Position numbers and translations under genes: made by a program. Below, piece by piece: positions 4,496 to 33,889 of a stretch of DNA of 64,000 nucleotides. The notes beneath the pieces are model-generated. The model did not search any database and was not told where the DNA came from. It saw nothing but the letters and a program-made list of their open reading frames with translations. This DNA is from Cyathus striatus (taxonomy: Eukaryota; Basidiomycota; Agaricomycetes; Agaricales; Nidulariaceae), in assembly GCA_025738555.1 (NCBI GenBank), contig JAOVFP010000010.1, positions 1,054,001 to 1,118,000 of the forward strand, read 5' to 3'. The first letter of the stretch is position 1. Every line of letters starts with the position of its first letter.

Positions 4496-4499
4496 AACC

Positions 4500-10028: not shown

Positions 10029-10187
10029 TCATTGCATACCATATCTACTTCCTTAAATACTCCAACATCAACATGCAAGACCCTCATATGGTCTACAAAG
10101 AACAGCCCAACAATATTGCCAAGTCTACAACCTACTCAATTCAACAAACATCTACAGATATTGGCGAAGCTTCCCATTCAATGCAGT

Positions 10188-10512: not shown

Positions 10513-10714
10513 TCAAATAAAATCTTTCAGCTACGTGGTGGCGGAAAAATGCTGTGGCCAGAGCTACCAGGGGAGACTAGCGAGCTTGGTTGGCAACGAG
10601 GCTACAAGCCAATAAATAAGTTCTGAGGGAAAATATATATAAAAGCACTGCAAGCAATCGGCAAAGATTTGCTTAACTTGAACTCATTGGGTTCTTTATT
10701 GTGTTGCTCCAGCT

Positions 10715-11786
10715 ATGTCTCACACCAATCCTCTTTTCAATGAACTTAGCACAAAGCAACACTCCATTAGTGAACTGGTTGGATGGAGTATCCGTGGTGG
10801 ATGCCTTGTTATAATGGATTAGTATGTTGTTTTGAATTTTTTATGTTGTGCAACATACTTATATAATTTATTTAAGTCCAGCCAATTTTGGTGTGCACAT
10901 CGTCCCCACAGGTATCAAGATGTGGCTGAGGAAGCGCTGCATCTATTGGCCTTGCTTCTGCGCAATTGTGGCTCTGGATGAAGAAATACAAAGAGCACAT
11001 ATTGCACATGACAGCAGTACTGGTTCCATTTGCGCTTCTTGTTGCTACCATACAGCTAAGTGTAATTATTTCGGTGAGTAAGAGCGATAGTATTGGTTAT
11101 AAATACTTACTCTATTCATATACAGTTGATATTTCAATGGTATACCATGTTGGAGTGCGGCAGTCAGACTATGCCAACCTACTAACTGAGCATGAGTTAA
11201 TATTAAATTTATCCAATGCAAGAAAACATACTGACGTGCGTACATTATTAGGAAACTGGAAACCAAGTATCAATCTAGTGCTTGCTCAGTCTAGAAGTCT
11301 TCGTGCACTCGGGGAGTCTCTAGCACACATAGAGGGGTACTGCAGGGAGTCTCTGCCGAGTTCATACAGATATTTGCTAGAGAATACCGCTAGTGATAGC
11401 ATTGCTGATCCATGGAAATCACTGGGAAAGCGAAAACAAAGTGAGTAAACTAAAATATAAGGTATAAATATGTAGGCTTACTGTGTTTCATAGTAGCATG
11501 TTCTGCACCTGGGCCTTCAAAAGCTCTTAAGCTCTCCCACTCTCGTTCTCCTGCTGCTACCCATGTTGTCAGACCTAAAAGTAAGGGGAAAAGCAGGGAA
11601 ATTGGTTCAGTGGGTGAATGTGTCTCTGACTGTGAATGGTTGCTCTTGAAGCAACTTGCTGATGGAAATGGGATCTCTTCTGGTGATGCAGAAGGCTTCC
11701 TACAGAAGTGCACGTCTTGCAGCATACATTTCTTATCTGACACATTCAATCTTCACGTATTGGGGTGCTCTAATGATTTGGATTAG
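10715..11786 (+). CDS. Unrecognised spliced gene with a C-terminal Cys/His cluster
   Basis: An ATG at 10715 opens a 34-codon exon (MSHTNPLFNELSTKQHSISE...) ending near a GTATGT donor. A 160-codon ORF covers 10966-11448. After an intron ending ...gtttcatag (about 11508) a last exon runs to TAG at 11786 and holds CTSCSIHFLSDTFNLHVLGC, a possible zinc-binding C-x2-C...H-x3-C. Upstream, a purine-rich leader and the word TATATAAAAGC near 10637 could be a promoter. The exon junctions I tried do not all keep frame, so the gene may be decayed. It is divergently placed to the transposase-like gene and could be its partner ORF. I do not recognise the family. Confidence 0.35.
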
Positions 11787-13365
11787 CTATAGTTCCAACT
11801 TTACAATGTGTACATAGATTATGGCAAGAATGCTGGTACAGTCATCAACCATTACACGTGACAACAAAACTTGAAGTTGTGATTCCACATTATCTAGTAC
11901 ATATTCTACTATAAAAATTGTACATATGGATAGATATAATCATATAGAATCACTTTGTATAATTTTTACCGTGCTGTGTTTTAGCAGGGAACAAACATTC
12001 GCAAAATAGTTGAGGGGACTGGATTTTGATCAAAACCACGTGGCGTGACAGCCGCTGATGGCAATACAGTTTATTACAAACATTTCAAAATTAAAGATTG
12101 CCGAAGTCCAGATCATTAATATAAACAAAACCTCCTTGTCTCGCAACACTGAGCACTTCAGATTTCTAGTGATATCAGAGAACATAGATGCATTTTACTC
12201 ATAAAAACATTTATACAGGTTTATTACATTGAATCATAGCTACTTATGCTATAAAAAAGTTAAATTAAGCACCTTTATTGAGTAATACATGCCATGTATT
12301 TTTTGGAAATCTCATGTTTAGGGTAACTCTCCAACTTAATTTATATGTCATATATCTATTTCAATATATACCTGTAAAAATACTGTTGGAACTCATTACT
12401 GGGATACTAGGCCTAAAAATACAAAAAGAATTGTAGTAATAGCCATAGATTTGACGTTAGGAGAAGTCAATCAGTTGGGTTTGTCACGTTGGGTGGTGTG
12501 TCACGTTGGGTGGTTGATGACTGTAATATTAATGCAATAGAGACGAACGTCGGGGGGTGTTTCAACACTTCGCGACGCGCGTCCGCGTCAGCCGTGTTTG
12601 GTTTGAAAGGTTATGAAACAAATAATTGACAAAGCCAGCTCAGCTTCAGAAAGCATGTGACCGGTCTCGATGAGCTGGTGCAATGGCTACCCTTACTAGT
12701 CCCTTACTCGGCATATCTCGTACACCGCATTCGGTACAGATCCGTAATCGAGATATAACAATCGGCACAAGACTGCTAAATCCACCCTGACGTTGGGGTA
12801 CTAGGGGAATTTTCGCTTATCTTCTTGACATCCTCTTTTTAAAAATATGTATCGGTGCCTACAGCTGCATAAGTATTTGCTGAGTATTGCCTAGCGACGT
12901 ATTTACGGGGTCTTATCAAGGAGTTTTCGTTGCCTGTTCTTCGTATCAAATGTAACATAGGTAGTAATCGCATTATCTTCAACATTAGGCTACTCATGGT
13001 ATAGAGGTTAGGCCCCCAACCGAAGCATGTCCCAATATACATGCTTTATTTGGCAAGGCCTAACTTGATCGTCGTCTACCGAGGAATCCCTGTGGCCAAC
13101 CTGTGGGAACCAGTAGCCCAGGGAATGCATTATATAAGTACACAAGTACTATATACTTTGGCACCTCAGTGGCTTCTCGGTATAAGCATGCGAAGAGATA
13201 CTCCCAAAACAATCCCAAAATTCCAAGAGGCGATTATGTGCGCCAGGGTAAACGGAGCGAGCAGGCGGTATACTTATACGCCTCCACACCGCCTCAACCG
13301 AATCTATATAAAGCGTGTTCATTATTCTCCTTCAATGCTTTTCCACTTGGCCCCCAAGCTCCGAC
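11787..13365. other. Intergenic, no gene recognised
   Basis: AT-rich to about 12.45 kb, then mixed composition. A block at about 12775-12870 (CCACCCTGACGTTGGGGTACTAG and following) resembles the 3' flank of the secreted-protein gene near 63718-63800, so it is a dispersed low-copy repeat. Short ORFs lack motifs. Confidence 0.45.
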
Positions 13366-17187: not shown

Positions 17188-18876
17188 AATTAGGGGCAGG
17201 CTCCTAAAACCAGCACGCTCGTATCTCGCTACAACCTCCTTAGGTAAACAGAGTCAAATATTTGCTTAAGGCAAATAAACCTAAGGGAGGTTCTGCTCGA
17301 TAGAGCGGCTGGCACTTGTCGCTGCCGACGTTTCCCCGCAGACCCTTTCCATCAACAGGGAAATCGACGGCAGCACATTCCGCTTTCCCACCTCTTACCT
17401 ACTCGCGCTCACAAACACAATACTTAATCTACAATTATCTGAGCCTCATGCTCTCTACCTACTTACTCTCAAGCACACAAATAATTTAATTTTGGTCTGG
17501 CTTCGGTTATTCTTGTTGACTGTAGTACTTGTAGTAATGTTGAGTAATACATAGAACAAACTATATTTTGAAAGTTATTGGCTAATACACATCTAACTGA
17601 AGTGAAGTGAAATATTAAAAACTAAGCAAACCTACACTCCTGATGTTCCATAGTCTACAAACAATTAGGCAGTCAAATAACTGAATGATAGTTGCCTGAA
17701 TGGCTCAGGCCCAGGCTCCATAGTATATATCTAAAAAAGAATTTCATCAATCACACTTGTAAATCTGTGAAGAAAGACTTACAATATATTTAACTGAAAG
17801 GCATAATGCATATTTACCTGTGAAGATAATCAGAATACTGTGCTACCATATTCAATTCGCCACCCTTGGTAGTGCATTACATGCCCAACCAATAGATACG
17901 TTCGGCACTTCAAGATTTTTAGTGTTACATATCAAAATTTTCGGCAGGTCAAGTAATTTTAGTGTAACATGTACCTTTAATTACGAAGTCTTGAATTCTG
18001 GTAGATAAGTAGCGGTCTTATTTCGATAAACATGGCATAATTATATGATATATCATGAGAGCTATCGTTCAATTCTCTAGATGCGCAGTTGCTTTATATC
18101 TTTGTATCATGTAGTCTTCAGCCATTACAACCATCGAATATTTTATATAATTATGAAGTGTCCCCAACAAGACTTACATGATTACTTACACCTTACAACG
18201 TCATCTTATTGTGACGGAACTGGTAGCCTGTATATGACTGGTTGTAGGTAGTGTGATTGACAAGGGCCGTGCAATTTTTGACCTACTACCTGCTCAACTA
18301 TGGCGGCCAGATGGCGGCGCAGTACAATGCGCAGTCTATTTCAACCATAGCACACTCCATATTGCTACCAATACATCAAACTACACTAATGTTCCACAAT
18401 AGCTTGTAAGGTAGTTTAGATACAATACAGACATTGAAAACAAAAAATTTGAAATATTCAGCACGTCTCTTTCAGATGTGTTACTTACCCTTAAATTTCG
18501 ACATACTCGGCAGGTGCGTTACCCATTATTGCCAAATTGAATATGTTAGTATAGTAATTCAATCAAGATCAAAATTAAATTATTTGTGTGCTTGAGAGTA
18601 AGTAGGTAGAGAGCATGAGGCTCAGATAATTGTAGATTAAGTATTGTGTTTGTGAGCGCGAGTAGGTAAGAGGTGGGAAAGCGGAATGTGCTGCCGTCGA
18701 TTTCCCTGTTGATGGAAAGGGTCTGCGGGGAAACGTCGGCAGCGACAAGTGCCAGCTGCTCTATCGAGCAGAACCTCCCTTAGGTTTATTTGCCTTAAGC
18801 AAATATTTGACTCTGTTTACCTAAGGAGGTTGTAGTGAGACACGAGCATGCTGGTTTTAGGAGCCTGAATTAGGGG
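17188..18876. mobile_element. MULE-type TIR element, 1671 bp, 298-bp TIRs, 9-bp target duplication
   Basis: The arms 17197-17494 and 18570-18867 are inverted copies differing at only 4 of 298 positions. Termini are CAGGCTCC...GGAGCCTG. The element is flanked by a perfect 9-bp direct repeat AATTAGGGG (17188-17196 and 18868-18876). Long TIRs and a 9-bp duplication are typical of Mutator-like elements. There is no transposase ORF inside, so it is non-autonomous. The interior contains an older mariner-type MITE. Low arm divergence suggests a fairly recent insertion into the hAT element. Confidence 0.85.
17836..18556. mobile_element. Old mariner-type MITE nested in the MULE-type element
   Basis: This 717-bp sequence (17838-18554) is homologous along its length to the MITE at 48845-49556. 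It has decayed inverted ends (CTGTGCTACCATATTCAATT...AATTGAATATGTTAGTATAG), flanking TA dinucleotides and many internal inserted GTTAC/CGGCA words. It is clearly more diverged than its partner, so it entered the MULE-type element long before that element jumped here. Confidence 0.7.
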
Positions 18877-18956
18877 CAGATTTTTTTGCTAAGGCTTAAG
18901 ACCTAATAACAGGCCTTAATTAAGGCTTTATTTAAGGCTTAAATTACGGTATTACG

Positions 18957-21900
18957 TCAGCCATCAAAATCATCACCTGACCCTTCTAACTCCCCATCAT
19001 CCGGTGTCGGGTCCTCATCTGCTGCTTCGTCTGCAAGCAGCTCCATCAAACGTGCTTCCTCTGTGTATGCCTGTCGCCTACGAAACCTCCTCGTCTGCTC
19101 TTCGACATCCACCTCATTCCTTTCCCCAAACAGGAGCTCAAGTGAGCGCGGCAACAGTCTGGATCTCTGGGAACCATACATTGCTGTGAGTACTGTTTCT
19201 TCTTCATTGGAATCGTTTTCTTCCCTTTCTTTTTGGACCCATTTTCGCATTTCCTTTCTCCATCCCTTACGAGAGCTAACTAATCCTGTTTGTACTTCTG
19301 CAGGTTCTCCCTCGGTCTCATCGGCCTCACCTTCGCCAATGTATTCCACAACGTCAGCATACCGTGGCACAGATAAAAGCTCTGCAACGTTTGCGTCATC
19401 GTGATTTTGGCGCTTTGAGTGATCCTGAGTCAACCCCGTGGCCTTATGAGATGCACGAATGTCTGCCCCCACCTATCAGGATAGATTATTATGGCTGAAC
19501 TAGTATGTTTCAATATCTACACTTACCTTTGCCATTTTTTCAAGTTTCTGCAGCTTCAGTCGATTGCGCAGCCTCGTCTTCTTTATTTTGAGGTCAGAAA
19601 AACTTCGCTCCAGCCCCGCCTGGTTTACTGACATCCCAAGCAGGAGGATGGCGAAGTCAGCAAGTTCAGCAACTCTAGTGGTTTTTTTGAGTACAGTCCA
19701 CACGTTGATGGGATCGGTGCCCTCGAAGAAAAATGTTGTAAGCCTTTTGTTTTAACTTCCTCACACAATCCACTTTGACTCGAAGCGCACTTCTGATATA
19801 CCAGCAGCTCCCTCGCACCCTCTCACCACACACCCTCTCATTCTTGCCACGCATTGCCACTACCCTGAACATAGCTGCTATATATATAGCTCTTGTGCTT
19901 ATCGTCGCCACGCACACCCGCTACACCACCCAGCACATCCTCGGCATCGACATATACTCTCGCTATCCACACATAGCTCTCGTGCTCATCATCACCACAC
20001 ATGCCATGTGCTCATACTGCCCGCTCATCCTTGGCATTGGTGCATATCTGCTGTGCGTATAGTTGTTCATCACATACATACACATGCACACCCACTACTT
20101 CACACACAGCCATTCCGTGCACACCCATCCGCTCCCCCACTACCCCAAGCGTGGCATTGCGATGTGCACCCACCACTCCCCACGCACACCCACTTCCTCG
20201 CTGCCCCGAGTGTTGATTGCGATGCGCACCCACTACCTCATGCACAGCCACTACGCACATAGCTCCACTCTTCCCCTTCCTCACTGCCCCGAGTGTTGAT
20301 TGCGATGTGCACCCGCTACTTCATGCATGGCCACTATGCACATAGCTCCACTCTTCCTCTCTCACAACGAAAGCAACAAGACTCACATGGACTGACTGAT
20401 GCGCCCCCTTGTTCGTACTGAAGTCTTCAAAGGCGCCAGTTCCACTCATGTACGCAACAAATGCAGTTGAAACATCTCTCTCCTTTTGTAGCTTGAGCTC
20501 ATTGTAAGCATCGGCTTCGGACTCAGAGCGGGGGGTCTTTGGAGGGCGTGATCGAACACACCTATATATCTACATATCATGTTGTCAGAATGGGGAGTTC
20601 ATAGGTAGTTGATACATACCTGTATAAGCAACGTATTCAGTGAAAATGGATTGATTTCAGCCTTCAGTCCAAAACGTGCAAGCCCTTCGAATGGATTAAG
20701 AATGAGTGCTAGAACAAACATGGGTTGATCCAGTGCTTTCCAGTGCTTTTCAACCCTAGCCATCATTCCTTCCGCAACTTCGGTATTGTTATGCTTCCTG
20801 AAATAGAGGTATATACCTGCAAAGGTTAAGAGAGCCTGATCAGGGCGGAAGGTGTCTGTCTGGTTGGTATTGATACCAAGGCATACTGGTTCAAGATCGT
20901 CAACAACACTCTTGAGGCGCTTCCAAAAAGAGCTATCATCAACAAGGTCACAATAACCATTAGCTTCTCGTTCCAGCTTTTCTCGCTTACGCCGGTTCTT
21001 CTCAGCTCCAACCTGTGCATCCACTATCTCTGCCCTTCTTGAGAGTACAGCTCGTCACATGGAATCCTTCAAATCGCATAACCGATCAAATGCGACAAAA
21101 TGAGTGGTCCAACGAGTCATATTTGCAACAAGGAAGGCGAGAACTTTTCCAGGTGGTACTTCAGCCTGAGCTTCATCAAACAACACACGAACTCTTCCAT
21201 GGGACAGAATCCAGCCGATTAAGTCTGTTGCTTCTTCAACAGTAGCAGCAGCCTCCGTATTGATGGCAAAGTAGTCGCCAAGAATTAGCTGGAACTATAC
21301 ATTGATTGTAAGTGGTTATTTTCACATCTTAAGCATGTACTACTGACCTGATGTGCACAACATGGTGGACCAAACAGCCATGGACGACGTAATACAAGAT
21401 CCTTCCTTCCACACTGGCTTCCTCCATCGTTGTCACAACAAAACCCCACGACGTTTACACCATATGTCTCTTCAGCTGCATCAATCATTTTTTCGAAAGC
21501 ATCGCACATGGATGTGCCATCTTTTTTGTGTGCATTGGACAAGATCAGATCTGTAAGGAATGTCTGGGTAGCGTCAGACTATTATTCATAACACAAACTA
21601 ACACTGTTCTCACTTTTCCACCTACAGACAGATTAACACCGCTGATAGAGTTTCGAGAATCATCCTTCCAGCCATCAGAAGCTACAACTGCATACTGTCC
21701 AACCAATTGCTTCTTCACCCTCTTCTGTACTGCTTCATCCTCTGCATCAAGAAGTCGACCAGAGAGCTGTCTGCGAGATGGTGTGACTTTTCGTGCTGCT
21801 GTTCTTAACATAAAGAATAGCTCAACGACTTCAGGGTCTTCAACCCAGCGGAAAGGTAGGTTGGCTGATATAGTAGCCCTGAGAAATTGCCTCTCAATTG

Positions 21901-22433
21901 CATCCTTTTGCGTGTCATTGAATGGAAGGTCGATCCCTCGGCATGGCTTCAGTGTATCTTGTTTAAGTGTGGGGGCGCTGTCCTGATGAGCCCTCTTTCT
22001 CGCATCCTCTGATCCTTCCTCATGCTCTCGCCCATGCTTCACCGGCAGTAGCCCTCCACCTCCAGACTTCACATTCTCTGCTACTCTGCGTGCATATTTA
22101 GATGCATGAGGACATCCATTCTTCCCGCTCCGTCTGAGAATATGGGAAATCATAGACTCTTTAACACCGCAAACACCACCTACCCCATCTTCCATTGCTA
22201 TAATTAGATCCACATTAATTGATTGAAAATGTGTGAGAAGTATACAAGTATATGCCTTTTATAGCCCACGCCTGCAACTGAAGTTTTGCGTCTCCGTTGT
22301 CATCAAGTTCCACGGTCTCGTAATCGGGGCAATGCTTTTGAATACATCCAATACAGTGAGCACGATAATGAGAGCCATTCTGCTTCACACCCATGAGATA
22401 GTAGTCCCAAAGTGGACTTTTTTGAGGTGGCAT
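18957..22433 (-). pseudogene. hAT transposase, nearly intact, one premature TGA
   Basis: Minus strand, about seven exons. The N-terminus (22433) has a BED-like zinc-finger segment SPLWDYYLMGVKQNGSHY followed by HCIGC. Next come a DUF659-like region (LPFRWVEDPEVVELFFMLRT, VVASDGWKD), SNAHKKDGTSMCDAFEKMID, and the C-terminal hAT dimerisation motif RVAELADFAILLLGMSVNQA plus ERSFS (about 19600-19690). An acidic tail runs to the stop at 18957. The intron near 22210-22270 uses a GC-AG pair. The reading frame is broken by TGA at 21055-21057, between DLKDSM and RAVLSRRAEIVD, where CGA (Arg) fits. Unless read through, it is inactive. The intron at 19722-20386 is 665 bp and holds a minisatellite. Confidence 0.75.
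19800..20365. repeat. C-rich minisatellite inside an intron of the hAT transposase
   Basis: The intron of 19722-20386 is filled with CACCC/CACTAC-rich repeats. Two adjacent units of about 82 bp are clear at 20200-20283 and 20284-20365; both begin TGCCCCGAGTGTTGATTGCG and end in CACTCTTCC followed by CTCAC. Less regular units lie at 20085-20200 and 19860-20000. ORFs read across it are repetitive (HTHYFTHSHS-like) and are not genes. Confidence 0.8.
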
Positions 22434-22805
22434 GATGATCTATTGACGATGTCTGGCTAGCACTGACCTGTCTTGGAGTCTTGACAAAAATTGATCAAAA
22501 TTTCAATCATGTAATCATGATTGATTATCTAATCGGAGTTCAAACTTATGTTACGGTTAACTTAAGGCTTAGCATCATTGGTCATATTTGCTAAGGGTTA
22601 AGTTACAATGTTTTTAAGCCTTAAGTTAAGTTAAGGCCTAAGACCTAATGCCAACACTGTCAATGACAACAGACGCTGGTTGCATTTGGATTGCATCATT
22701 CTTGTTTTCAACTTCAGCTCCGTTTCACCAACGTCTCCCTGCAAGCTAGGCGCTACTTTCTTGCACCCCTGCTGATGCTACATTTATACAATTTCTATAA
22801 TGGGT

Positions 22806-24045
22806 ATCTATGCATAGTCTCGGCTACCCATCCGTTAGCGCTCGTCCAAATCGGGATTTGCGACTGCCACCGTCTGGGAGAAAACGAGCAACTTTAGAAG
22901 GGGTATGCATTCGGTGTTCTCGGGCTTCGCAGATGCCTGTCCGCACGCGTTTTTGTGTATTAGTAATGTAATTAGTCAGCATCACGATGCGATAATCTCA
23001 ATCTGCGCTGCATTCGCGTTCGTGTTTGCTTGCATCTTCACTCCACTCCATCATCTCTCCTCAATATCCTGCCTTGTTCTACTTTTTACTTGCTTGTATC
23101 ATGCCACAGCTACCTAAATTCAGTGTTTATTTCTCTGAAGGGGTGCACTTTCATTCAGATTACAGTGAACCTGAGGCAATGACTTCCCCTGGCCTACCAC
23201 CTTCATCTCCACTGCCTATTAACCCTGTTCTGCGAGATGAACATCTTTTGGCATTAAATCCAAGCTCAGATCTGCTAGAAGAGGACCCTAATGATAAAGA
23301 TTTTGAGGTTAAGAAAGAGAGATTACCAGCAACAACTTTAGATCAAAAGATTCTTGGAACTATTGCCCATATGCAAAATATGTATTCTAGATTGTCACTG
23401 GCTGAATTTCTCATTGGCCTTTTCAAATCTGAAGATCATTCTCTAAAGGCAACAGCTGGAATGTTTTATGCTGAGGATTCACATATCAAGATGATGGAAA
23501 GCTTGTGGAATCATTATGGGGGACAGAAAGATAATGCAATGGTGGATTGGATTATGGAGAAAGCAACTGCTATATGTGCTCATGAAAGTAACAATCTCAC
23601 CTATAGAGCATCCATTGGACCACACTCACAGAAAGCTGAAATGGGTTTCATCAGTAATTCTAGCCCTTTTGTTGTGTCTAGGAGGCCATGATTCAAGATT
23701 ATTGTTGCCTGACATGTGAAATATTGCAGTTAGCAGTCGTTAAACTGAATGAGAATGAGTCTAGGATGCGAAGAGCAAGTGGAGCGCATTGGGAGTGTGT
23801 TAATTGTGGATGCACATGCAATGCGCGTGCAACGCGAATGCAGCGCAGATTGAGATTATCGCATCGTGATGCTGACTAATTACATTACTAATACACAAAA
23901 ACGCGTGCGGACAGGCATCTGCGAAGCCCGAGAACACCGAATGCATACCCCTTCTAAAGTTGCTCGTTTTCTCCCAGACAGTGGCGGTCGCAAATCCCGA
24001 TTTGGACGAGCGCTAACGGATGGGTAGCCGAGACTAATCTATGCA
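22806..24045. mobile_element. MULE-type TIR element, 1222 bp, 206-bp TIRs, 9-bp target duplication
   Basis: The arms 22815-23020 and 23831-24036 are inverted copies differing at 2 of 206 positions. Termini are TAGTCTCGG...CCGAGACTA. A perfect 9-bp direct repeat ATCTATGCA flanks it (22806-22814 and 24037-24045). It carries a plus-strand ORF that is not a transposase. The TIR sequence is unrelated to the element at 17197-18867, so it is a separate family with the same insertion chemistry. Confidence 0.88.
23101..23691 (+). CDS. Truncated ORF carried by the MULE-type element
   Basis: ATG 23101 opens a 196-residue ORF lying entirely between the two TIRs. The first part is Pro/Ser-rich and acidic (MTSPGLPPSSPLP, LLEEDPNDKDFEV). 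A helical segment TLDQKILGTIAHMQNMYSRL follows, then SLAEFLIGLFK, MVDWIMEKATAICAHESNNL and TYRASIGPHS. The last part resembles the N-terminal region of large agaricomycete repeat-encoded proteins, some of which carry DUF6589 downstream; that link is from memory and weak. It stops shortly after that module, so it looks like a captured or truncated N-terminus. The gene could be expressed from inside the element; no intron is needed. Confidence 0.5.
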   Translation: MPQLPKFSVYFSEGVHFHSDYSEPEAMTSPGLPPSSPLPINPVLRDEHLLALNPSSDLLEEDPNDKDFEVKKERLPATTLDQKILGTIAHMQNMYSRLSLAEFLIGLFKSEDHSLKATAGMFYAEDSHIKMMESLWNHYGGQKDNAMVDWIMEKATAICAHESNNLTYRASIGPHSQKAEMGFISNSSPFVVSRRP

Positions 24046-24529
24046 ATATCTACGCGCACGGATGTACTATACAAGGGCCCTGCAGATGGGGGCTGGACTT
24101 CGCCTTCCACTATTGGACGCTCACAAATCACGATCCATGTCCATATGCGCAGTAAGGAACAAGTCTCACTAAGCACCTAGTACCTATTTCCATCGAAACA
24201 TGCGCAGGTACTTAAATATTGCTATCCTTTTATATGTGTTCTTATTATCAAGCTATCAACTCGAACTAATTGCCTGCGTATACAGTCTACTACAGCAATG
24301 AGCGGACCACTCGTCTTCTAACCCACCCAAGTAGGCAGACTCACCCTTTCCCACAGAACGATCCACCTTTCCACTCAACTGCTTCCATAACTTCAAACAC
24401 ATGCACATTCTACGCACAGCTCTAATGAAAGAGTACTACACCCAACATGCCTCCATGCCGGGTACACCCATTATAGCCGAAGGGACCCTCATATCCCCTT
24501 TGAATGGTTCGTCCCTCCCCTCTTCTTTC

Positions 24530-25024
24530 TAGACATGTGAATGCCCAACCCCCTCCTCCAACTCACGCACTCAAAGCTGTCCACCTGAACCTGGTATATT
24601 TGCACATAATCGAGCCTAGCATAGAGCAAGAGAACGACGCGAAGATTACTCATAAGAACCTGTCGAATGATTTTATAAAGGACATTTGGGCGCCGAAGGT
24701 CTCGACCAGTGCGAGTGCAGGGGAGTATACGAGAGAAAGAGCGATGTATATTGCTTATAGACGGCGGTTCATTGCTTGTGTGTGTTTTCTCTTTCTTCTG
24801 TCTCTTTATTTATGGATATTCGTCCTTCCTTCCTTTATTTCGCTGTTTCGTTCCGTTGGAGAGTAGATGTAACCGACAATCGAAATATAGCCGGACTTTC
24901 CGAAACGAGTAAAAGAGAACTTACCACTGAATAAGTACTACTGGACGACACTTTATGTTCCTACGGAGGGGCGGAACCTGAGGTTGGGTATGTTGATTAT
25001 CCATTTTATAAAGCTGGAGTATAA
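24530..25024 (+). pseudogene. Old Yellow Enzyme (NADPH dehydrogenase) pseudogene fragment
   Basis: Reads LNLVYLHIIEPSI, then LSNDFIKDIWAPK and GEYTRERA. After a gap and a frameshift it reads LYVPTEG and EVGYVDYPFYKAGV with a stop near 25024. These match the C-terminal third of fungal OYE-family flavoenzymes, which reduce activated C=C bonds with NADPH (A-Y-L-H-V-V-E-P; N-D-F-I-R-x-I-W; T-F-Y-V-P-T-E-G; V-G-Y-x-D-Y-P). The section with the FMN phosphate-binding residues (x-G-R-x-F-I-S-N-P) is missing and the frame changes. It lies tail-to-tail with the KNH-like gene. Confidence 0.75.
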
Positions 25025-25230
25025 AAACACGCATAAACTGAAATATTATTGGGAATCATATCGGTAACATAAATTTGATTATGAAGCACGTCACTTCTGT
25101 ACTCAAACCAGATTATGTGCCGAATGCATGACCTAAATCAGCAATGTATGCTATGATAGTCCGTATTTACAGTTCGTACACATATCATCCCTTGTCAAAT
25201 CGATGCGCTTCAACCATGCTACGAATAAAC

Positions 25231-25711
25231 CTAAGCTACAATCTTGAAGAAAGGGCTGACGTCTCCGGAGTCTCCGAAGACTTGATAATATGTTAACTTC
25301 ACAAAAGTAGCGGATATATATATACGGCTTACGAATGATCTGATAACTTCCAGGTGTGACTTCGGGCACAGTAAAGTTTACACTGCCGGATCTGAGGTCG
25401 AAACCTTGCGCGAGTACCAGGTTAGCCGTTCTGAGGTAGACTTCAGCGTAGTTGGAGATGTTCTTGGGGGCATCAGAGGTGTCCCTAATAATAATTGTAA
25501 GTAGACGATCTTCAAATTAGGTGAAGAGTTGATTATACCAAGTGACACTTTCAACATTTCCAATGGTCCAAACTGTGGACGCAGTAGGTGTAAGAATCTT
25601 CGGGTCAAAGATGTCTAAAGCACTCCTAGAGGCAAAGTCGACTGGAGAAGCGTTGACAGCAGTGCTGAAAACTGAGAGAAGGACAGTTGCGAGAGAAAGT
25701 TTGAAGTTCAT
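25231..25711 (-). CDS. Small secreted Kre9/KNH1-like (Ser-Thr-rich GPI-family domain) protein
   Basis: Three exons (25711-25539, 25484-25333, 25280-25231) with GT-AG introns give 124 residues. The start is ATG 25711: MNFKLSLATVLLSVFSTAVN is a clear signal peptide, followed by a mature chain with PKILTPTASTVWTIG and VESVTW. Exon 2 reads DTSDAPKNISNYAEVYLRT, FDLRSGSVNFTVPEV and TPGSYQII. Exon 3 reads LFGDSGDVSPFFKIVA and TAG. This is the Kre9/KNH1 Ig-like cell-wall domain, abundant as short secreted proteins in Agaricomycetes; yeast homologues act in beta-1,6-glucan assembly. There is no C-terminal GPI signal, so it is probably secreted free. All phases agree, so it looks functional. A paralogous fragment lies at 14858-15045. 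Confidence 0.8.
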
Positions 25712-25849
25712 CGTCGTAAGCTTGTAATGCGATATACAATATGAAGCGTTAGAAAGTGAACGATGAATCGTATGGAGGACATACCGAGTATTTGTATTGC
25801 TAGAGGTTGATGGGTTCCGTGCTCGTCGTGAAGTCATTCGCTAGGTATT

Positions 25850-27050
25850 GTATTGGATCGTTCGATCACCGCCGACATCGGGAAAGGTATACAGAAGTCG
25901 TCATAAGAGCTGACAGACCATTTGGCATGTGGATGGTAGTGTCGATGACTAAGTAGCCATCTATTACTGCTGTACCAGAAAGTTCTTCGGCAGAAGATCC
26001 GTTACAGCCATGTTGAAAGCGAGACGTTTGTTTGAACACTGCTATGTATCATAAAGATAGTATTTGGAATCCCCCAGGACAACCCATAGGAGAACTGTAG
26101 AACACCCGTTGCCCGTGCGCCGACGTAGGAGCGAAGATTTCTGATGCAAGAGCAGACCCTGTACGTTGCTGAACGCGCATATATGAGACGAAGAACGTAT
26201 AGTGAAATAGTGAAATGTGTAGGGAGTACGAATCGGATCAAGGTGATGAATTCGAAACGAGCGGACCATTAAGAGACTGAAATATTGATTCCTGAAATAG
26301 ACAGGTATTGCTGCGGCGACTAAGTTAGTTGCCGAACCAGATAGAGTATTTAGTAAATGACATATCCTTAGCGACAATGTCGAGCTAGACCACATACCTC
26401 GTTATGTTCAGAGAGCAACCTCTTTCATCAGGGCTGACTAAATGAGTGTGTAATGTGGTTTACAGGGCTGAAACGTTTGGAAGTCAACTCTATACGTCCA
26501 AGCACAAGTGGCTCACCTTTAAAACTTAAAACTTGAAGGTACAAGATTCATTTTTATACCATTACATTAGTAAACATGAGATACTTTCATATGCAGAGAT
26601 TTGTCCGAGGAAGAGCCTGGGGAAGGACGAACTTACATTCTTTGGTAAATAAACACCTTCGGGCCAAATAAACTGACTGACTCACGCGTCATCCATCCTT
26701 CAGCGTTACCACGACACACCTCTTCCCGATTCGCTCGTCTTCCTTATAAACGGCCAGATGTAAAAAAGTAACCCTTAAATCTCGTCCGAATCGATATGGA
26801 CCCTCCCCCGCCTACCATGAGTCACAGGACTGACCAGGTTCCAGGTATAACCAGGATCTAGATCGGCAGCAGTAGCTGCAGTAGTAGTGCTCGCATGTTA
26901 TGTACTCTCCTATGCTGGTCATTGTCAAACGCAGGGGAGGAATTGATCTAGAACCCGCTTGTAGTATGTACGACGATGTAACTGCTTGTGTATTGATTCT
27001 GCAACGTTGAGCTCATATGATGTGAACTGACTTCGATTGTTCACCGTAGC
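25850..27050. other. Intergenic, no confident gene (includes a Harbinger exon at its right edge)
   Basis: Short minus-strand ORFs at about 26000-26395 have hydrophobic stretches but no family that I can name. From 27050 leftwards on the minus strand, the codons read ATVNNRSQFTSYELN, which fits the continuation of the Harbinger transposase interrupted by the gypsy element. Confidence 0.4.
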
Positions 27051-27063
27051 CTGAATATTCAAC

Positions 27064-27436
27064 TGTTAGGATTTCGTCACTTATCTAATCTTTTATCTAA
27101 TCATATCTTATCTATGTCATGTGATAGTCACATGACCTACAATGAGGATACCATGCGTATCAATATACGTTACTCATCATGACTGTGAGCACAGTTGCAC
27201 AGTTCGGCCATACGTATTACATGAGTTCTTAATGTAGAAGCACAGTAACATGCGTTGTAGTGTAGGCTAATGTACATGCGATTACTTCATGGTTCCTTTC
27301 TATAAATATGGTCTCTCTAGTTAGTAGTTCGACATTCTTGTGCTAGTTTATTCCAGATTAGCAATAAGACTTACTTCTCTCTCACGTTCGAGTGTTTAAG
27401 TTCGGCTTCGAGTATTTTGCTCGTCTGTCGCTAACA
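27064..27436 (+). repeat. 5' LTR of the gypsy element
   Basis: 373 bp, TGTTAGGATTTCG...CGCTAACA. It contains a TATA box (TATAAATA, 27301-27308) about 130 bp before its end. It differs from the 3' LTR only at 27309 (T here, C at 33762), within CG/TG. Confidence 0.95.
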
Positions 27437-27894
27437 AAAGCACAAGAATCTCCTCATTCCTCGACCCCGAACTTCTCTTCTCTCGCCGAACCCCGGCAAA
27501 ACTTCTTTCTATAAACTCGTCCCCCGTCTTGGACCTCTTGGACCAGACGTACACTCCGTTCGATAGACTTGATCGTTGTACTTGGAAGTACGAGAGGACT
27601 GGTGTAACGTTGAGCCCGACACTGTCCGAATTACCGATCATCTTAGGCCCTCTGCCTTAAGTTTGGCACGGCGCCAGTGACTGGGGAGGCTACCACGTGT
27701 TGCCCCAGCTGGTTCTATCTGCAAGAAAGTGTGCGTGAAACTTAGGACGTCTCGCTAGTTTCCGAGCATCCTCAAAAGCTTCTGTTACTCGATCTACCAC
27801 GGTGGCACCAATTACTCGTTCTCAAACCCTTCGATCTCTCCGATCCCGTTCCTATCACATCCCTTCTTCATCCGTACCCATCTACATCCTTTGA

Positions 27895-28242
27895 TCTCGC
27901 CCTACACCCTATTCCCGTCCTCAAACTCCGAGAACCGTGTCGGTGGACTCCGACGACTCGGACTTTGATCCCAACACCTATCTTTCCCTTCACCAAATTC
28001 CAAACTATATCGCACCACCCCGTCTCACTACTCCTCCCGAACACCCAATTCTCCGAACCCTTACCATTATCACCGAACCCGGACACGACGACGTACTTAG
28101 ATTTAGTACTCCTACTCGATATATTTCCCCATTCGAACACGATTTCTATTCTCCTTTAGGATACGAAACCCTTCTAAACACCGTTTATAACGACGGAAGA
28201 GAACTTCCTACACCCACGTACCCCGAAGACCCAGATCTATAA
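27895..28242 (+). CDS. Leader ORF upstream of gag in the gypsy element
   Basis: An open frame from 27895 to TAA at 28240-28242, rich in Pro, Asp and Tyr (SVDSDDSDFDPNTYLSLHQI, PTPTYPEDPDL). It contains no ATG; GTG at 27937 is only a formal start. In the same frame, further upstream, an ORF opening near 27799 ends in TGA at 27892-27894, so the two were probably one frame. Its stop overlaps the gag start as TAATG, an arrangement suited to termination-reinitiation. It could be the true N-terminal part of Gag or a regulatory leader. No known domain. Confidence 0.5.
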   Translation, partial: SRPTPYSRPQTPRTVSVDSDDSDFDPNTYLSLHQIPNYIAPPRLTTPPEHPILRTLTIITEPGHDDVLRFSTPTRYISPFEHDFYSPLGYETLLNTVYNDGRELPTPTYPEDPDL

Positions 28243-29489
28243 TGATCTCCGGTGAAATTATTCTCGGCTTCATCACAGCCATAGTGATGGTCTTTATGAA
28301 AGACGAAATCATAACAAGATGGACCAACATGACTCCTGCCAATAAGCAGTTAGTCACAGAAAGTGTTTCCGCAATGACTCAAGGAGTTATTAAAGAAATT
28401 AGAGACGGAATTAAGGAAGATCGACCGGAACCCAAGGAAAAGGTCGAGATTCCAGAAGATTATGAAGGAGATCCCCATACGGTTAACAATTGGATTAGAC
28501 GTATGATGCTATACTTTCAGGAAAAGAATATTACGAATGACTGGAAGAAAATCATGATCGCTTTACCAAAAGTAAAGAAAGGAAAAGACAACCGAGCCCA
28601 ACGATGGGCAGACACGTTTTTAGGAGATTTGATCTTGTTTAACGAAGAACGAGCTCAATGGAAATTACTACACGACGGAAAGGAACCCACCTTACAAGAC
28701 ACACAAAAGGTTAACATCGCAGCAACAGACACATCCCCAGCCATCGTCCATGATGCATTCAAAACGAGTTGCCCATTCGCCGATTGGAACACGTTCGTCG
28801 AAAGACTTCAATTTTTCTTTATCTCCACGGAAACTCAGAACAATGCGATCGAACAAATCAACAAGGTGATACAAGGTAATCGACCTGTTGAAGATTATAC
28901 GATCGACTTCATGCAATGGATGAACTTAACCGGATTCGATAACATGGCCCTTGTAGACAAATACCGACGCAGGATGCATCCTCTTTTGGCTAGAAGACTT
29001 ATGGAAGTCGGTGGACTTAAAGTCACCGATAAACTCATTGATTGGGTGGATAAAGCTGCAGAATATGAAAGAAACCGTCGAGAAGCCAATTTCGGACGCA
29101 CTCAGCAGAATTTTGGAAGACCACAAAATCAAAATCAGAATTCTGGACATCCACAAAATAATTCGAACCCTGGAACCCCATCGACACAAAACATGCAAAA
29201 GACACCTGATCGCTCCAATCTTACGGTATCACAAGGTGGTAATCGTATGGACCTCGATCAATTAAAGAAGGAAGGTCGTTGTTTTTATTGCAAGGAGAAA
29301 GGACATATGTCCAACACATGCCCAAAGAAACCACGTGGACCTTATGTACAACATAATGTAAATATGGACAATTCTATACCTGTAGCTTCCACTAGCGGAA
29401 TAGTAGAATTACCGGATGTAACTAAATTATCAGAAGAGCAACGTGCTCTCCTCATTGCTCAATTGGGTTTTCCCCAAGGCCAGCAGTGA
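28242..29489 (+). CDS. gag: Gag polyprotein of the gypsy element
   Basis: 415 residues. It begins with a hydrophobic helix (ISGEIILGFITAIVMVFM), which is unusual for Gag. A retrotransposon Gag capsid-like region follows, with WIRRMMLYFQE (about 85), KIMIALPKVKKG (about 105), WADTFLGDL, FQLFF-type helices and VEDYTIDFMQWM (about 215). A Gln/Asn-rich linker precedes the zinc knuckle CFYCKEKGHMSNTC (residues 347-360, C-x2-C-x4-H-x4-C), which binds element RNA in the particle. The ATG overlaps the leader ORF stop. Its TGA (29487-29489) overlaps the pol frame, which is -1 relative to gag and open from 29426, so pol is probably made by -1 frameshifting or reinitiation. Confidence 0.9.
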   Translation: MISGEIILGFITAIVMVFMKDEIITRWTNMTPANKQLVTESVSAMTQGVIKEIRDGIKEDRPEPKEKVEIPEDYEGDPHTVNNWIRRMMLYFQEKNITNDWKKIMIALPKVKKGKDNRAQRWADTFLGDLILFNEERAQWKLLHDGKEPTLQDTQKVNIAATDTSPAIVHDAFKTSCPFADWNTFVERLQFFFISTETQNNAIEQINKVIQGNRPVEDYTIDFMQWMNLTGFDNMALVDKYRRRMHPLLARRLMEVGGLKVTDKLIDWVDKAAEYERNRREANFGRTQQNFGRPQNQNQNSGHPQNNSNPGTPSTQNMQKTPDRSNLTVSQGGNRMDLDQLKKEGRCFYCKEKGHMSNTCPKKPRGPYVQHNVNMDNSIPVASTSGIVELPDVTKLSEEQRALLIAQLGFPQGQQ

Positions 29490-32400
29490 GCGCAAACTCG
29501 CCGGCCTCTTTTTATATACCTTCTAATGTAACTGTACCTACGGTAGATCTGGAATCGAAATACATATCATTACAAAAAGAAAGAACTAAACGCGCCTTCC
29601 CTAATCAGGAAGTAAAACCTGGAAACGTGTATTGGGTCGCACGGAGATTAAAAGACCAAACATCGGAACTTGCCTTGGCTACATTAAGCATATGGACACA
29701 TCCCAAACGAAGACCTGAAGTAATTCAGAAAACGATTAAGGAACTAAACGATCTCTCAGATCAAGAAGTAATCCTGGCGTTAGAAGAATTAAAAAGACCC
29801 AAAAGATTTATCAGAGGAACAAATGGAAATCAAATGGATCTTGATTTAATGGTTACTACATTAGATACTCAACGAACATACGGATTAAAAGCGTTACTTG
29901 ATAGTGGAAGTACTGGAACTTGTATTAATCGAAGATTTGTAGAGGAACATCAACTCACAACAAAGAAATATTCCCGGCCATCTCCGGTTTACAATGCAGA
30001 CGGAACTCTTAATAGTGATGGTTCAATTACCGATTACGTTGAACTGAGAGTAAGACATGGAAAACATGTAGAAATATTACAACTAGCTGTAATAAATCTA
30101 GGAAAAGCATCTATGTTTATTGGACACGATTGGCTTCGAACTCACAATCCAGAAATAAATTGGAAAGAAGGAACAATCAAATTCACACGATGTCCAATAG
30201 AATGTACTCCATTAATAAATACGATGAATCCAGAAGAAGATGAATCTGATCTAGATGAACAGATAAATCTTGAATCAGACGATCATATTATAGCAGTCAA
30301 TATAATCGAACAGATCGAACTAAGAGCTTTTCAAACTACAGCTTCGAAAATTGCTGAAGCACAAAATCAGCAAAGACCAAAGAAGCATTGGAAAGAAACT
30401 GTTCCTATGTACTATCATGAATTCGAAAGAGTATTTGCAAAGGAATCATTTGATAAACTTCCTCCCCGTCGACCATGGGATCATGCAATCGAATTATTAC
30501 CAGGAGCCACATCATTTGATTGTAAAATCTATCCATTAAGTTTAGACGAACAGAAACAATTGGATGAATTCCTCGATGAAAATCTAAATTCAGGACGCAT
30601 CAGACCTTCGAAATCACCTTGGGCATCACCGTTCTTTTTTATTAAAAAGAAAGACGGATCTTTACGACCAATTCAAGATTATCGAAAATTAAATGAATTA
30701 ACGATTAAAAACAGATATCCATTACCGTTAATTCAAGAATTAGTAGATAAATTGAAAAAGGCACGATACTTTACCAAGTTAGATATTAGATGGGGATACA
30801 ATAATGTTCGGATCAAAGAAGGAGACGAACAGTATGCTGCATTTAGAACTAACAGAGGATTATTCGAACCTTTAGTTATGTTCTTTGGACTTACGAATTC
30901 CCCTGCAACTTTCCAGACTATGATGAATGATATTTTTAGAACGGAAATTAATGAAGGAACTGTAATCGTATATATGGATGACATTTTGATATTCACGGAA
31001 ACATTAGAAGAACACAGAAAAATGGTTAAAAGAGTTGTTAGGAAACTAGAACAACACGAACTATATCTTAAACCTGAAAAGTGTTTTTTCGAGAAAGCGG
31101 AAGTTGAATATCTAGGCCTTATCATTTCAAAGAATTCAGTACGAATGGATTCTGAAAAAGTAAAAGTGATAGTCAACTGGCCTGTTCCAAATAATAAACG
31201 CGAACTTCAACAATTTCTAGGATTCATCAATTTTTACAGAAGATTCATTCAAGGATTCGCAAAAATAGCGAAACCACTTCATGAATTAACTGGAAAAAAT
31301 GAATGGAAATGGGAATTAAGTCAAGCTTTAGCATTTTCCAAACTAAAAGATCAAATCATATCGGCACCTATTTTAGCAATGCCAAATGATGATGGAAAAT
31401 ATCGTGTAGAAGCAGATTCCTCAGATTTTGCAAATGGAGCCATTTTATCTCAGGAACAAATTGACAGAAAATGGAGACCAATTGCCTTTTTATCACATGC
31501 TTTAAGCCCAACTGAACGAAATTATGAAATCTACGATAAGGAAATGCTCGCAATAATGAGAGCGTTAGACACGTGGAGACAATACCTTTTGGGAGCTAAA
31601 CAAGTATTCGAAATTTGGACAGATCACAAAAATCTCCAATACTTCAAAAAACCCCAAAAACTAAATCGACGGCAAGCAAGATGGTATACAGAATTATCAG
31701 AATTCCATTATACGTTACATCATAAACCGGGAAGTCAAATGACAAAAGCAGACCTTTTATCTCGAAGAGCTGGACATGAACAAGGCGAACATGATAATGA
31801 AGACATTACACTTCTTAAACCAGAACACTTCAGACAAACATATGAAGTTCATGGTGAAGACGAAGATATCATGGAACAAGTTCGAAAATCCAGAAAAAAT
31901 CGAGATAAGGAAGTAATTAAAATGCTTAACCTAAAAACGAAAGACTGGGAAGAATCATCTGAAGGTATTATTACATGGAAAAATCGAATTTACATTCCTA
32001 AAAATGCAAAGCTCAGAGAACGTATAATTAGACTATGTCACGATTCTGCTGTATCTGGACACCATGGAGAATACAAAACAATGGAATTAATCACGAGAGA
32101 TTATTGGTGGCCTAGAATAATGGCAGATATAAAGAAATACGTTTCCGGATGCGAAGCATGTCAGAGAACAAACATACATAGATCGAAACCAATAGGATTA
32201 TTAAATCCTAATAGTATTCCAGAAGGACCTTGGCATACTATATCCATCGACTTTGTAGGACCACTCCCATATTCTCGAGGATTTGATTTTTTAATGGTAG
32301 TTGTTGATCGATTCACAAAGATGGCAGCCTTTATTCCATGTAACAAAGAAATCGATAGCCCAGGAGTAGCCGAATTATATTTAGAGAAAGTATTCAAAAA

Positions 32401-33301
32401 CTTCGGAATGCCACAACGAATTATTAGTGATCGAGGATCGCAATTTGCATCTCATTTCACAAAAGAATTCACAAAGCGATTAGGAGTTAAAATGAATTTA
32501 TCAACTGCATACTGACCACAGACAAACGGACAAGTAGAACGTGTAAATCAAGAGATAGAACAATATCTCCGAATTTACGTAAACTATGATCAAGATGATT
32601 GGGCGGATAGAATAGCAGTAACAGAATTTAATTACAACGATACTGTACATCGAGCAACAGGATATACACCGTTCTATTTAATGTATGGACATCATCCCTA
32701 TGGAGGAATCAGACCAAACGGAACATCATGAACTATTGGAGTAGATGAATTCATTTCTACAATCACCAAAGCTAGAGAAAATGCAAGGGCAGCACTTACA
32801 TTATCCAATGAAGCGATGAAACGGGGATATGACAGAAATAGAAAGGAATCGCCCGAATACAAACCCGGAGATCTAGTTTACGTAGAAGGGATTAATATTA
32901 AATCCGACAGACCGGTTGCAAAGTTAGATGACAAATGATACGGTCCCTTTAAAGTAATAAAGAAAATAGGATTAGCCTCATATGAAATCCAATTACCGAA
33001 GACTTGGAACCGAAAACACCCCGTATATAACACACAACTACTTACGAAACATATTCCGGCACAATACAAATCACAACAGAAACCGAAACCCCCACCTGCT
33101 GTTGTGATAGATGATCAGGAACAGTATGAAGTAGAAGCAATACTTGCGTGGAAAATAAATCGGAAGAAGGTTCTCTATAAAATTAAATGGAAAGGTTACT
33201 CCTACGATCATTGTACATGGGAACCAATTACGTCATTAACCGGATCAAAAAGTCTTTTAAATAAATTCCATCGGGAAAATCCGGAATGTCCTAACGTATA
33301 A
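29426..33301 (+). pseudogene. pol: Pol polyprotein: protease, RT, RNase H, integrase, chromodomain; three in-frame TGA
   Basis: The frame runs from 29426; residues are numbered from GTG 29486. Protease LLDSGSTGTC has its catalytic Asp at 139. RT holds the YMDD box (496-499). RNase H has VEADSSDFANGAIL (Asp 644). Integrase has an HHCC zinc region (CHDSAVSGHHG...CEACQ), Asp 922 (SIDFVGPLP), Asp 982 (ISDRGSQF) and Glu 1018 (GQVERVNQ), an exact D-x35-E spacing. A chromodomain starts at about 1214 (YEVEAILAWKI, YKIKWKGY, TWEP). TGA codons at 32513-32515 (1010), 32729-32731 (1082) and 32936-32938 (1151) interrupt an otherwise continuous frame to TAA 33301. The first falls before the catalytic Glu, so a terminated product lacks integrase activity and the chromodomain. 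Confidence 0.9.
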
Positions 33302-33337
33302 ATACAACGAAGCTATTCAAAGTAATAATTATTCAAA

Positions 33338-33490
33338 ATGCTCTCAAACAACATCACTCTTTTGATTTACATAATCGTAATCTTTATCCTTTGCATGGCC
33401 GTATTCATACTTGGTCATTACATTCCTCGTATTATCCTTCGTATTCAAGAACGACAATCCCTACCGGAAGAATCAATTGAAATGTCGTGA
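33338..33490 (+). CDS. Small single-pass membrane ORF between pol and the 3' LTR
   Basis: ATG 33338 opens 50 codons ending in TGA 33488-33490. After a short N-terminus (MLSNNIT) comes an uninterrupted hydrophobic stretch of about 19 residues (LLIYIIVIFILCMAVFILG), then a basic turn (HYIPRIILRIQERQ) and an acidic tail (LPEESIEM). It starts 36 bp after the pol stop and ends 26 bp before the LTR, so it occupies almost all the space there. It has no decay despite three stops upstream. It is far too short for a retroviral envelope. Function unknown; it could be a chance ORF, but the composition is markedly membrane-like. Confidence 0.5.
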   Translation: MLSNNITLLIYIIVIFILCMAVFILGHYIPRIILRIQERQSLPEESIEMS

Positions 33491-33503
33491 GGACACGACT
33501 CTT

Positions 33504-33513
33504 AAAGGAGGGG
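33504..33513 (+). promoter_or_regulatory. Polypurine tract
   Basis: AAAGGAGGGG lies 3 bp before the 3' LTR start, in the position of the plus-strand DNA primer of LTR retrotransposons. Confidence 0.8.
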
Positions 33514-33516
33514 TAA

Positions 33517-33889
33517 TGTTAGGATTTCGTCACTTATCTAATCTTTTATCTAATCATATCTTATCTATGTCATGTGATAGTCACATGACCTACAATGAGG
33601 ATACCATGCGTATCAATATACGTTACTCATCATGACTGTGAGCACAGTTGCACAGTTCGGCCATACGTATTACATGAGTTCTTAATGTAGAAGCACAGTA
33701 ACATGCGTTGTAGTGTAGGCTAATGTACATGCGATTACTTCATGGTTCCTTTCTATAAATACGGTCTCTCTAGTTAGTAGTTCGACATTCTTGTGCTAGT
33801 TTATTCCAGATTAGCAATAAGACTTACTTCTCTCTCACGTTCGAGTGTTTAAGTTCGGCTTCGAGTATTTTGCTCGTCTGTCGCTAACA
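33517..33889 (+). repeat. 3' LTR of the gypsy element
   Basis: 373 bp, same length as the 5' LTR, with one substitution (C at 33762). It is flanked on the right by TCAAC, the copy of the target duplication. Confidence 0.95.

What the first reader, a model, noticed from the sequence alone, without database searches (positions are those of the whole stretch)
17197..33889. CpG-decay signature shared by unrelated transposons
Comparing paired repeats within single insertions gives mutations since insertion. The gypsy LTRs differ at 1 site (CG versus TG). The MULE-type element at 22815-24036 differs at 2 TIR sites, both CG/TG. The one at 17197-18867 differs at 4, three of them CG/CA or CG/TG. So 6 of 7 differences are CpG transitions. 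The premature stops I located in transposon frames (gypsy 27892, 32513, 32729, 32936; hAT 21055; 7-10 kb family 9705, 8501, 8417) are all TGA, mostly where CGA (Arg) fits. Fungal transposons can be CpG-methylated and decay by 5mC deamination; classic RIP acts at CpA and would give TAG/TAA as well. The inference is a CpG-directed process acting on recent insertions.
Basis: partly seen in the sequence, partly recalled or inferred. Interest (0 to 1): 0.75.

Follow-up and report, generated by a model that had tools for sequence, protein, structure and literature searches.

The report
Fungal transposons decaying at CpG sites
Young jumping genes in this fungal genome mutate almost only at CG letter pairs, as expected if the cell methylates its transposons and the methylated letters then decay; this looks like a very clean example of a process already described in other mushroom-like fungi.

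Summary
The CpG signature is real and extends beyond the window. The window's gypsy LTR pair differs at 1 site, a CpG transition. In 17 complete LTR pairs of this family, taken genome-wide, 21 of 21 substitutions are CpG transitions. Between elements of the family only 8 of 50 LTR variants are (p = 8e-12). So the CpG-only spectrum belongs to residence after insertion, not to replication. TIR pairs of both MULE-like families are CpG-biased too. Old repeats at 1-12 kb have lost most CpG (observed/expected 0.12-0.49). Qualifications: one TIR pair has 5 differences, not 4; TIR differences may predate insertion; the cited stop at 27892 is not in the gag frame; and a second LTR family is not CpG-exclusive (7 of 19), with hot spots that resemble consensus errors. 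The genome encodes DNMT5 and a DNMT1-class enzyme; no third methylase was found. Most likely mechanism: CpG methylation of transposons followed by 5mC deamination, as described in Ganoderma and other basidiomycetes. Methylation itself was not measured. A CpG-targeted RIP-like mutator is not excluded.

The parts
27064..27436 (+). 5' LTR of the gypsy element
   Evidence: direct repeat of 33517-33889, 1 difference (CG/TG), TG...CA ends
33517..33889 (+). 3' LTR of the gypsy element
   Evidence: as above; TSD TCAAC at 27059-27063 and 33890-33894
28242..29489 (+). gag-like ORF
   Evidence: Retrotrans_gag E 4.4e-5 (at the cut-off), Ty3_capsid E 1.3e-6 (just below its cut-off)
29486..32515 (+). pol ORF, cut short within the integrase core by a TGA
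   Evidence: RVT_1, RNase H, integrase matches; copies share a later terminator
17197..18867 (.). MULE-like element A with long TIRs (about 302-307 bp)
   Evidence: TIRs 98% alike, 5 differences of which 3 CpG, TSD AATTAGGGG at 17188-17196 and 18868-18876
22815..24036 (.). MULE-like element B with 206-bp TIRs
   Evidence: 2 TIR differences, both CpG; TSD ATCTATGCA at 22806-22814 and 24037-24045
20602..22258 (-).
   Evidence: no Pfam match in 2 ORFs; only 4 other places in the genome match
8000..9505 (-). part of the 7-10 kb repeat family, with TGA at 8417 and 8501 (9705 lies just beyond)
   Evidence: four 86% copies elsewhere; codons of the copies
1..12000 (.). CpG-poor block of old repeats
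   Evidence: CpG o/e 0.12-0.49, TpG+CpA o/e 1.27-1.43

Best explanation
The host methylates CpG in its transposons, most likely through the DNMT1-class enzyme and DNMT5 that its genome encodes, and the 5-methylcytosines deaminate to thymine. Each resident copy therefore loses CpG, to TpG or CpA, far faster than its other sites change. Shown: CpG-only differences inside LTR pairs of one family, a broad spectrum between element lineages, CpG-biased TIR pairs, CpG-poor old repeats, TGA stops where other copies mostly have CGN, and two methyltransferase loci. Inferred: that these CpGs are methylated in this fungus, and that deamination of 5mC (spontaneous or promoted) is the chemical step.
For: 17 complete gypsy LTR pairs: 21 of 21 substitutions are CpG transitions; the 19 that were polarised by the other copies are all CpG losses. 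Between elements 8 of 50 (Fisher p = 8e-12). TIR pairs: B 36 CpG transitions, 8 with a changed neighbour, 7 other substitutions in 6 copies; A 34, 33 and 54 in 8 copies. CpG transitions to transversions 70:34 in these TIR pairs, against 50:208 in three duplicate pairs of the window (p = 1e-17). CpG o/e 0.12-0.49 at 1-12 kb against 0.76-1.10 at 24-64 kb. 4 of 4 premature stops in 13 gypsy 3' segments are TGA. DNMT5 homologue (E 1.2e-78 to 7r76) and DNMT1-class piece (E 5e-11). The same association, with bisulfite data, in Ganoderma sinense (PMC4457147, passages).
Against: No methylation data for this genome. The second LTR family is not CpG-exclusive: 7 of 19 raw, 4 of 7 outside hot spots. The gypsy rate ratio (lower bound about 53) is higher than the roughly tenfold ratio I recall for methylated CpG in mammals, which could mean more than passive decay. 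The window duplicates also change CpG somewhat more than GpC (21 of 40 against 14 of 34; 21 of 40 against 14 of 41; but 8 of 17 against 8 of 15).
Confidence: 0.74

Rival explanations
1. A CpG-targeted RIP-like defence: duplicated sequences are recognised and CpG is mutated actively, for example by methyltransferase-coupled deamination in the sexual cycle, without RID.
For: The rate ratio in the gypsy LTR pairs is very high (97.5% lower bound 53 for 16 pairs). Authors have called similar patterns in Ganoderma and Microbotryum RIP or RIP-like (PMC4457147, PMC5381629; passages). Counts per pair are overdispersed (p = 0.003).
Against: Counts per pair are graded, 0 to 6 of about 15 CpG per LTR, not a burst. 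No TpCpG preference (TCG 24 of 136 against 48 of 200 at other CpG, p = 0.18). No third methylase was found, though a gene split by introns could be missed.
Confidence: 0.15
2. Consensus-sequence errors: long reads miscall methylated CpG, so some 'mutations' are assembly artefacts. Methylation would still be implied.
For: The second LTR family shows recurrent one-base differences and indels at two CpG-rich tracts: 9 of 16 pairs at about 493-497 and 7 of 16 at 122-128.
Against: The gypsy hits are not hot-spotted: 13 distinct positions for 19 hits, P(13 or fewer) 0.16-0.37. The 17 pairs show no one-base indel, only one 30-bp deletion. They are overdispersed among elements. CpG depletion of old repeats and TIR pairs with 13 CpG transitions in 198 bp (L005) cannot be read errors of this kind.
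Confidence: 0.08
3. A genome-wide CpG mutation bias, not tied to transposons.
For: CpG changes somewhat more than GpC in two of three window duplicates. CpG-biased SNPs in genes as well as repeats are reported for Rhizoctonia, and CpG-biased SNPs for Heterobasidion (PMC4014442, PMC5870257; passages).
Against: The two methyltransferase loci and most of 24-64 kb keep CpG o/e near 0.76-1.10. The window duplicates have about 4 transversions per CpG transition, against 0.5 in the TIR pairs; these duplicates are more diverged, and copy number was checked for only one of them.
Confidence: 0.03

Closest known systems
CpG methylation and CpG-biased C-to-T mutation of transposons in Ganoderma sinense (PMC4457147; passages seen)
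   Same: Agaricomycete; mutation in repeats prefers CpG; 98.7% of 5mC in CpG; nearly all affected transposons methylated
   Different: There CpA is the second preference and the authors call it RIP; here CpA change is absent in 16 gypsy LTR pairs, and methylation is not measured
CpG-only transposon signature with a Masc2-like DNMT1 and no RID in Microbotryum, Melampsora and Puccinia (PMC4352252; abstract and passages seen)
   Same: CpG-only signature; DNMT1-class enzyme; no RID found
   Different: There inferred from copies against a consensus; here from LTR pairs within single insertions
RIP-like TpCpG hypermutation of Gypsy elements in Microbotryum (PMC5381629; passages seen)
   Same: Gypsy elements with a few mutated sites per copy; expanding clade with fewer hits
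   Different: No TpCpG preference here
Repeat-induced point mutation (RIP) of ascomycetes
   Same: C-to-T change in repeats
   Different: CpA target, RID-dependent; neither seen here
MIP and methylation of truffle transposons (PMC4165359; passages seen)
   Same: Methylation of repeats preferring CpG, deamination not strictly coupled
   Different: Methylation not measured here; an ascomycete with another enzyme set

Membership tests
5mC-deamination decay of CpG-methylated transposons | C-to-T excess at CpG on both strands in repeats | tested here: met
   21 of 21 in 17 gypsy LTR pairs; internal CpG singletons 28 C>T and 22 G>A
5mC-deamination decay of CpG-methylated transposons | CpG methylation of the copies | not testable with these tools
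   no read-level or bisulfite data
5mC-deamination decay of CpG-methylated transposons | CpG methyltransferase genes in the genome | tested here: met
   DNMT5 homologue L039, DNMT1-class L040; activity not tested
5mC-deamination decay of CpG-methylated transposons | Same bias in every methylated family | tested here: inconclusive
   gypsy, A and B yes; second LTR family 7 of 19 raw, 4 of 7 outside hot spots; its methylation is unknown
Classical RIP | CpA target | tested here: not met
   0 of 810 CpA/TpG changed to TpA in 16 gypsy LTR pairs
Classical RIP | RID/Masc1 gene | tested here: inconclusive
   PF00145 gave 2 loci, DNMT5 and DNMT1 class; a gene split by introns could be missed
Pucciniomycotina RIP-like process | TpCpG preference | tested here: not met
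   rates by 5' neighbour 0.27 (A), 0.18 (T), 0.18 (C), 0.29 (G), p = 0.34
Ty3/gypsy LTR retrotransposon | LTRs with TSD, gag, RT, RNase H, integrase | tested here: met
Mutator-like element (A and B) | Long TIRs and 9-bp TSD | tested here: met
Mutator-like element (A and B) | MULE transposase | tested here: inconclusive
   the one ORF of B that was scanned has no Pfam match; no ORF of A was scanned; such copies may be non-autonomous

The most novel reading that the evidence does not exclude
In a fungus in which no RID was found, resident transposons suffer an active, CpG-exclusive mutator (methyltransferase-coupled or repair-deficient deamination) at some 50 times or more the rate of all other sites together. 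Proliferating lineages largely escape it, so the mutation spectrum of a copy records whether it has been silenced.
Probability: 0.2. Interest if true: 0.65.

Novelty: new member of a known kind. Interest (0 to 1): 0.4.

Why it matters
It separates two mutation spectra in one element family unusually cleanly: CpG-only after insertion, broad between lineages. That makes LTR pairs a direct readout of what looks like methylation-driven decay. It also warns that an LTR clock in such a fungus counts CpG hits and not neutral substitutions, so insertion ages from a standard rate would mislead. It offers a natural system for asking whether basidiomycete 'RIP' is an active defence or plain 5mC decay.

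Tried and rejected
Strand asymmetry of the LTR-pair hits (4 C>T: 15 G>A, p = 0.02) suggested deamination of one strand, but internal CpG singletons are even (28:22), so I treat it as chance.

TpCpG context: no preference.

Age correlation: LTR-pair hits against CpG singletons of the same element, Spearman 0.51, p = 0.11 (n = 11); against non-CpG singletons 0.17, p = 0.61. Suggestive only.

TET/JBP search: no match, but no control genome rang either, so it says nothing. UDG search: one weak match, not classified. Rfam on the window: no match. A protein search with the DNMT5 piece listed relatives but no names that helped to place the host.

Second LTR family as a test of generality: it does not reproduce CpG-exclusivity (7 of 19 raw; 4 of 7 after leaving out alignment positions 122-128 and 494-497, which hold 12 of the 19). 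The two families differ (p = 9e-6 raw, 0.01 cleaned).

Host control: introns could not be compared (no relative genome). Three duplicate pairs in the window (40.7-43.8 kb, 57/63 kb, 16.7/59.6 kb) served instead. Copy number was checked for the first only: its middle (query 446-953) is a repeat with three 85-88% copies, but the aligned duplicate parts lie outside that.

Corrected on rechecking: searches counted one copy of family A twice (L050 and L059 are one element); one search repeats the count with one locus per copy, and the report uses for A. The A+B test changed from 77:38 to 70:34 with the same conclusion. One search also showed that the cited stop at 27892 is not in the gag frame. Best-explanation odds moved from 0.75 to 0.74 and the artefact rival from 0.07 to 0.08, a rounding and not a consequence of these facts.

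Papers: abstract, section list and passages of PMC4352252; passages only of PMC12543289, PMC4014442, PMC4457147, PMC4165359, PMC5870257 and PMC5381629. A search for nanopore errors at methylated sites gave one listing, not opened. The mammalian CpG rate ratio and the name DNMT5 for the protein of 7r76 are recalled.
Full report
What was checked. The window lies at C10:1054001-1118000 of a 107.45-Mb, 24-contig genome. The host is probably an agaricomycete-like basidiomycete: weak F-box and MYND matches, below their cut-offs, at 45.9-47.2 kb, and DNMT5 plus a DNMT1-class gene; the placement is inferred. The gypsy element has two LTRs (27064-27436, 33517-33889), the target duplication TCAAC on both sides, and gag, RT, RNase H and integrase matches. 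Its LTRs differ at one site, CG against TG. Elements A (17197-18867) and B (22815-24036) have long TIRs and perfect 9-bp target duplications. B's TIRs differ at 2 sites, both CG/TG. A's differ at 5 sites in 302 bp, 3 of them CpG, not at 4 as reported. So 6 of 8 differences are CpG transitions.

Replication outside the window. The 40 LTR copies listed of 433 candidates gave 17 complete pairs, covering 32 of the 40, with two mates that were not in the list. Eight listed copies gave no complete pair: one LTR without element sequence on either side (L036), one truncated mate (L029/L073), one mate not found in the stretch fetched (L032), and five not followed. The list is of best matches to the window's LTR, so it favours young copies. 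In 16 pairs (5911 bp, 482 CpG bases) there are 19 substitutions, all CpG transitions, all CpG loss when polarised by the other copies; 6 of the 16 pairs are identical. The 17th pair, L013/L014, split by a nested element of the second family, adds 2 of 2. The chance of 19 of 19 under equal rates per base is 2e-21, and the 97.5% lower bound on the rate ratio is 53, or about 59 with 17 pairs, using estimated base counts for the last. Including the truncated pair (2 CpG, 2 non-CpG beside the breakpoint) gives 23 of 25, ratio about 130, interval 32-1136.

Two spectra. Where both LTRs of an element agree, differences between the 16 elements are CpG transitions in only 8 of 50 cases, against 21 of 21 within pairs (p = 8e-12). 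Singletons over LTR plus 1.5 kb of either end give 38 of 196 (14 copies) and 34 of 191 (13 copies). The broad spectrum is what copying by reverse transcription would leave; the CpG-only one arises while a copy sits in the chromosome. This is inference from the contrast.

Other families. TIR pairs of B: 36 CpG transitions, 8 changes with a changed neighbour (as when CG has become TG on one side and CA on the other), 7 others, in 6 copies. TIR pairs of A: 34, 33 and 54 in 8 copies. Two further inverted-repeat pairs met in flanks differ at 1 and at 3 sites, all CpG. In the 7-10 kb family, about 14% diverged, 6 non-independent comparisons give 170 of 227 CpG changed against 163 of 404 GpC, an imperfect control because GCG overlaps. 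A nearly identical pair of that family (L081/L082) differs by 1 CpG transition and 2 transversions. TIRs may differ before insertion, so these pairs show the process but do not date it.

The family that disagrees. A second LTR family (767-bp LTRs; 40 copies listed of 648 candidates, 99-100% identical) gave 16 pairs: one held already and 15 fetched. They differ at 19 aligned sites, of which 7 are CpG transitions. Twelve of the 19 fall at two hot spots that recur, 9 of 16 and 7 of 16 pairs having an event there, with one-base indels in CCCGG and CGGG tracts, as consensus errors would. Outside them 4 of 7 are CpG. This family shows far less CpG loss than the gypsy family (5 of 845 against 19 of 241 CpG). 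It is either younger or less affected.

Stops. In 13 copies of the gypsy 3' segment, 4 premature stops precede the terminator that all 13 share; 4 of 4 are TGA, and 3 are in the window copy. In 15 copies of the gag start, 2 near-identical copies have one TGA each and 13 have none. Other copies carry CGN as the commonest codon class at the cited gypsy sites, clearly at 3 and narrowly at the fourth (6 CGN, 5 AGA, 1 TGG of 12). One of these sites, 27892, is out of the gag frame in a leader with stops shared by all 15 copies, so it is no proven premature stop. At 3 of 3 sites of the 7-10 kb family the commonest codon in 4 other copies is CGA. At the single site in the region called hAT one relative has TGA and one CGT.

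Old repeats and host. Window 1-12 kb has CpG o/e 0.12-0.49 with TpG+CpA 1.27-1.43; 24-64 kb has 0.76-1.10. The two methyltransferase loci have 0.84 and 0.94. The 26 outer flanks of gypsy copies examined range from 0.00 to 1.09, so many copies sit in CpG-poor surroundings. Three duplicate pairs in the window have 50 CpG transitions to 208 transversions, against 70 to 34 in TIR pairs (p = 1e-17); the duplicates are older, and CpG is slightly ahead of GpC in two of the three.

Mechanism. The methylase Pfam finds two loci among 8 candidates. One matches the protein of PDB 7r76/7r77/7r78/7t02 at E = 1.2e-78; the record names it Rad8, and I recall it as Cryptococcus DNMT5, a CpG maintenance enzyme. 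A piece of the other matches DNMT1 at 5e-11. With no CpA bias and no third enzyme found, CpG methylation followed by 5mC deamination is the simplest account (0.74). A CpG-specific RIP-like mutator (0.15) is left open by the high rate ratio; graded counts per pair (0 to 6) and the absence of a TCG preference argue against it. Consensus error (0.08) is a real concern in this assembly, given the second family, but the gypsy hits are neither hot-spotted nor accompanied by one-base indels.

Known or new. CpG-biased transposon mutation with CpG methylation is described for Ganoderma sinense (PMC4457147, passages); a CpG-only signature with a Masc2-like DNMT1 and no RID for Microbotryum and two rusts (PMC4352252, abstract and passages); CpG-biased SNPs for Rhizoctonia and Heterobasidion (PMC4014442, PMC5870257; passages). 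The finding is a new member of a known kind. I did not see the LTR-pair contrast in the listings or in the passages read; the library holds open-licence papers only.

Noticed in passing
L014:1933-2699, L071 and L085-L114: A second LTR family with 767-bp LTRs: 40 copies listed of 648 candidates, 99-100% identical, a very recent burst; one copy is nested in a gypsy element on C2.
   Followed up: partly
second LTR family, alignment positions 122-128 and 494-497: Recurrent one-base differences and indels in CCCGG and CGGG tracts in one LTR of many pairs; looks like assembly consensus error at CpG-rich tracts.
   Followed up: partly
window 1-12000: Block of old repeats with CpG o/e down to 0.12 and a sharp rise near 12 kb.
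   Followed up: partly
outer flanks of gypsy copies in L011-L038: Of 26 flanks of 1.5 kb, 3 have CpG o/e of 0.00; the family often lies in CpG-poor surroundings.
   Followed up: no
gypsy family: LTR pairs are nearly identical while elements differ from each other by about 7-14% over LTR plus 1.5 kb: many parallel, recently active lineages rather than one burst.
   Followed up: no
window 40714-43751: Tandem duplicate, 73-81% alike, with a repeat inserted in one copy; no clear Pfam identity (one weak DUF3810 match).
   Followed up: partly
window 20190-20355: Two tandem 83-bp units, 90% identical, with several CG/TG or CG/CA differences by eye.
   Followed up: no
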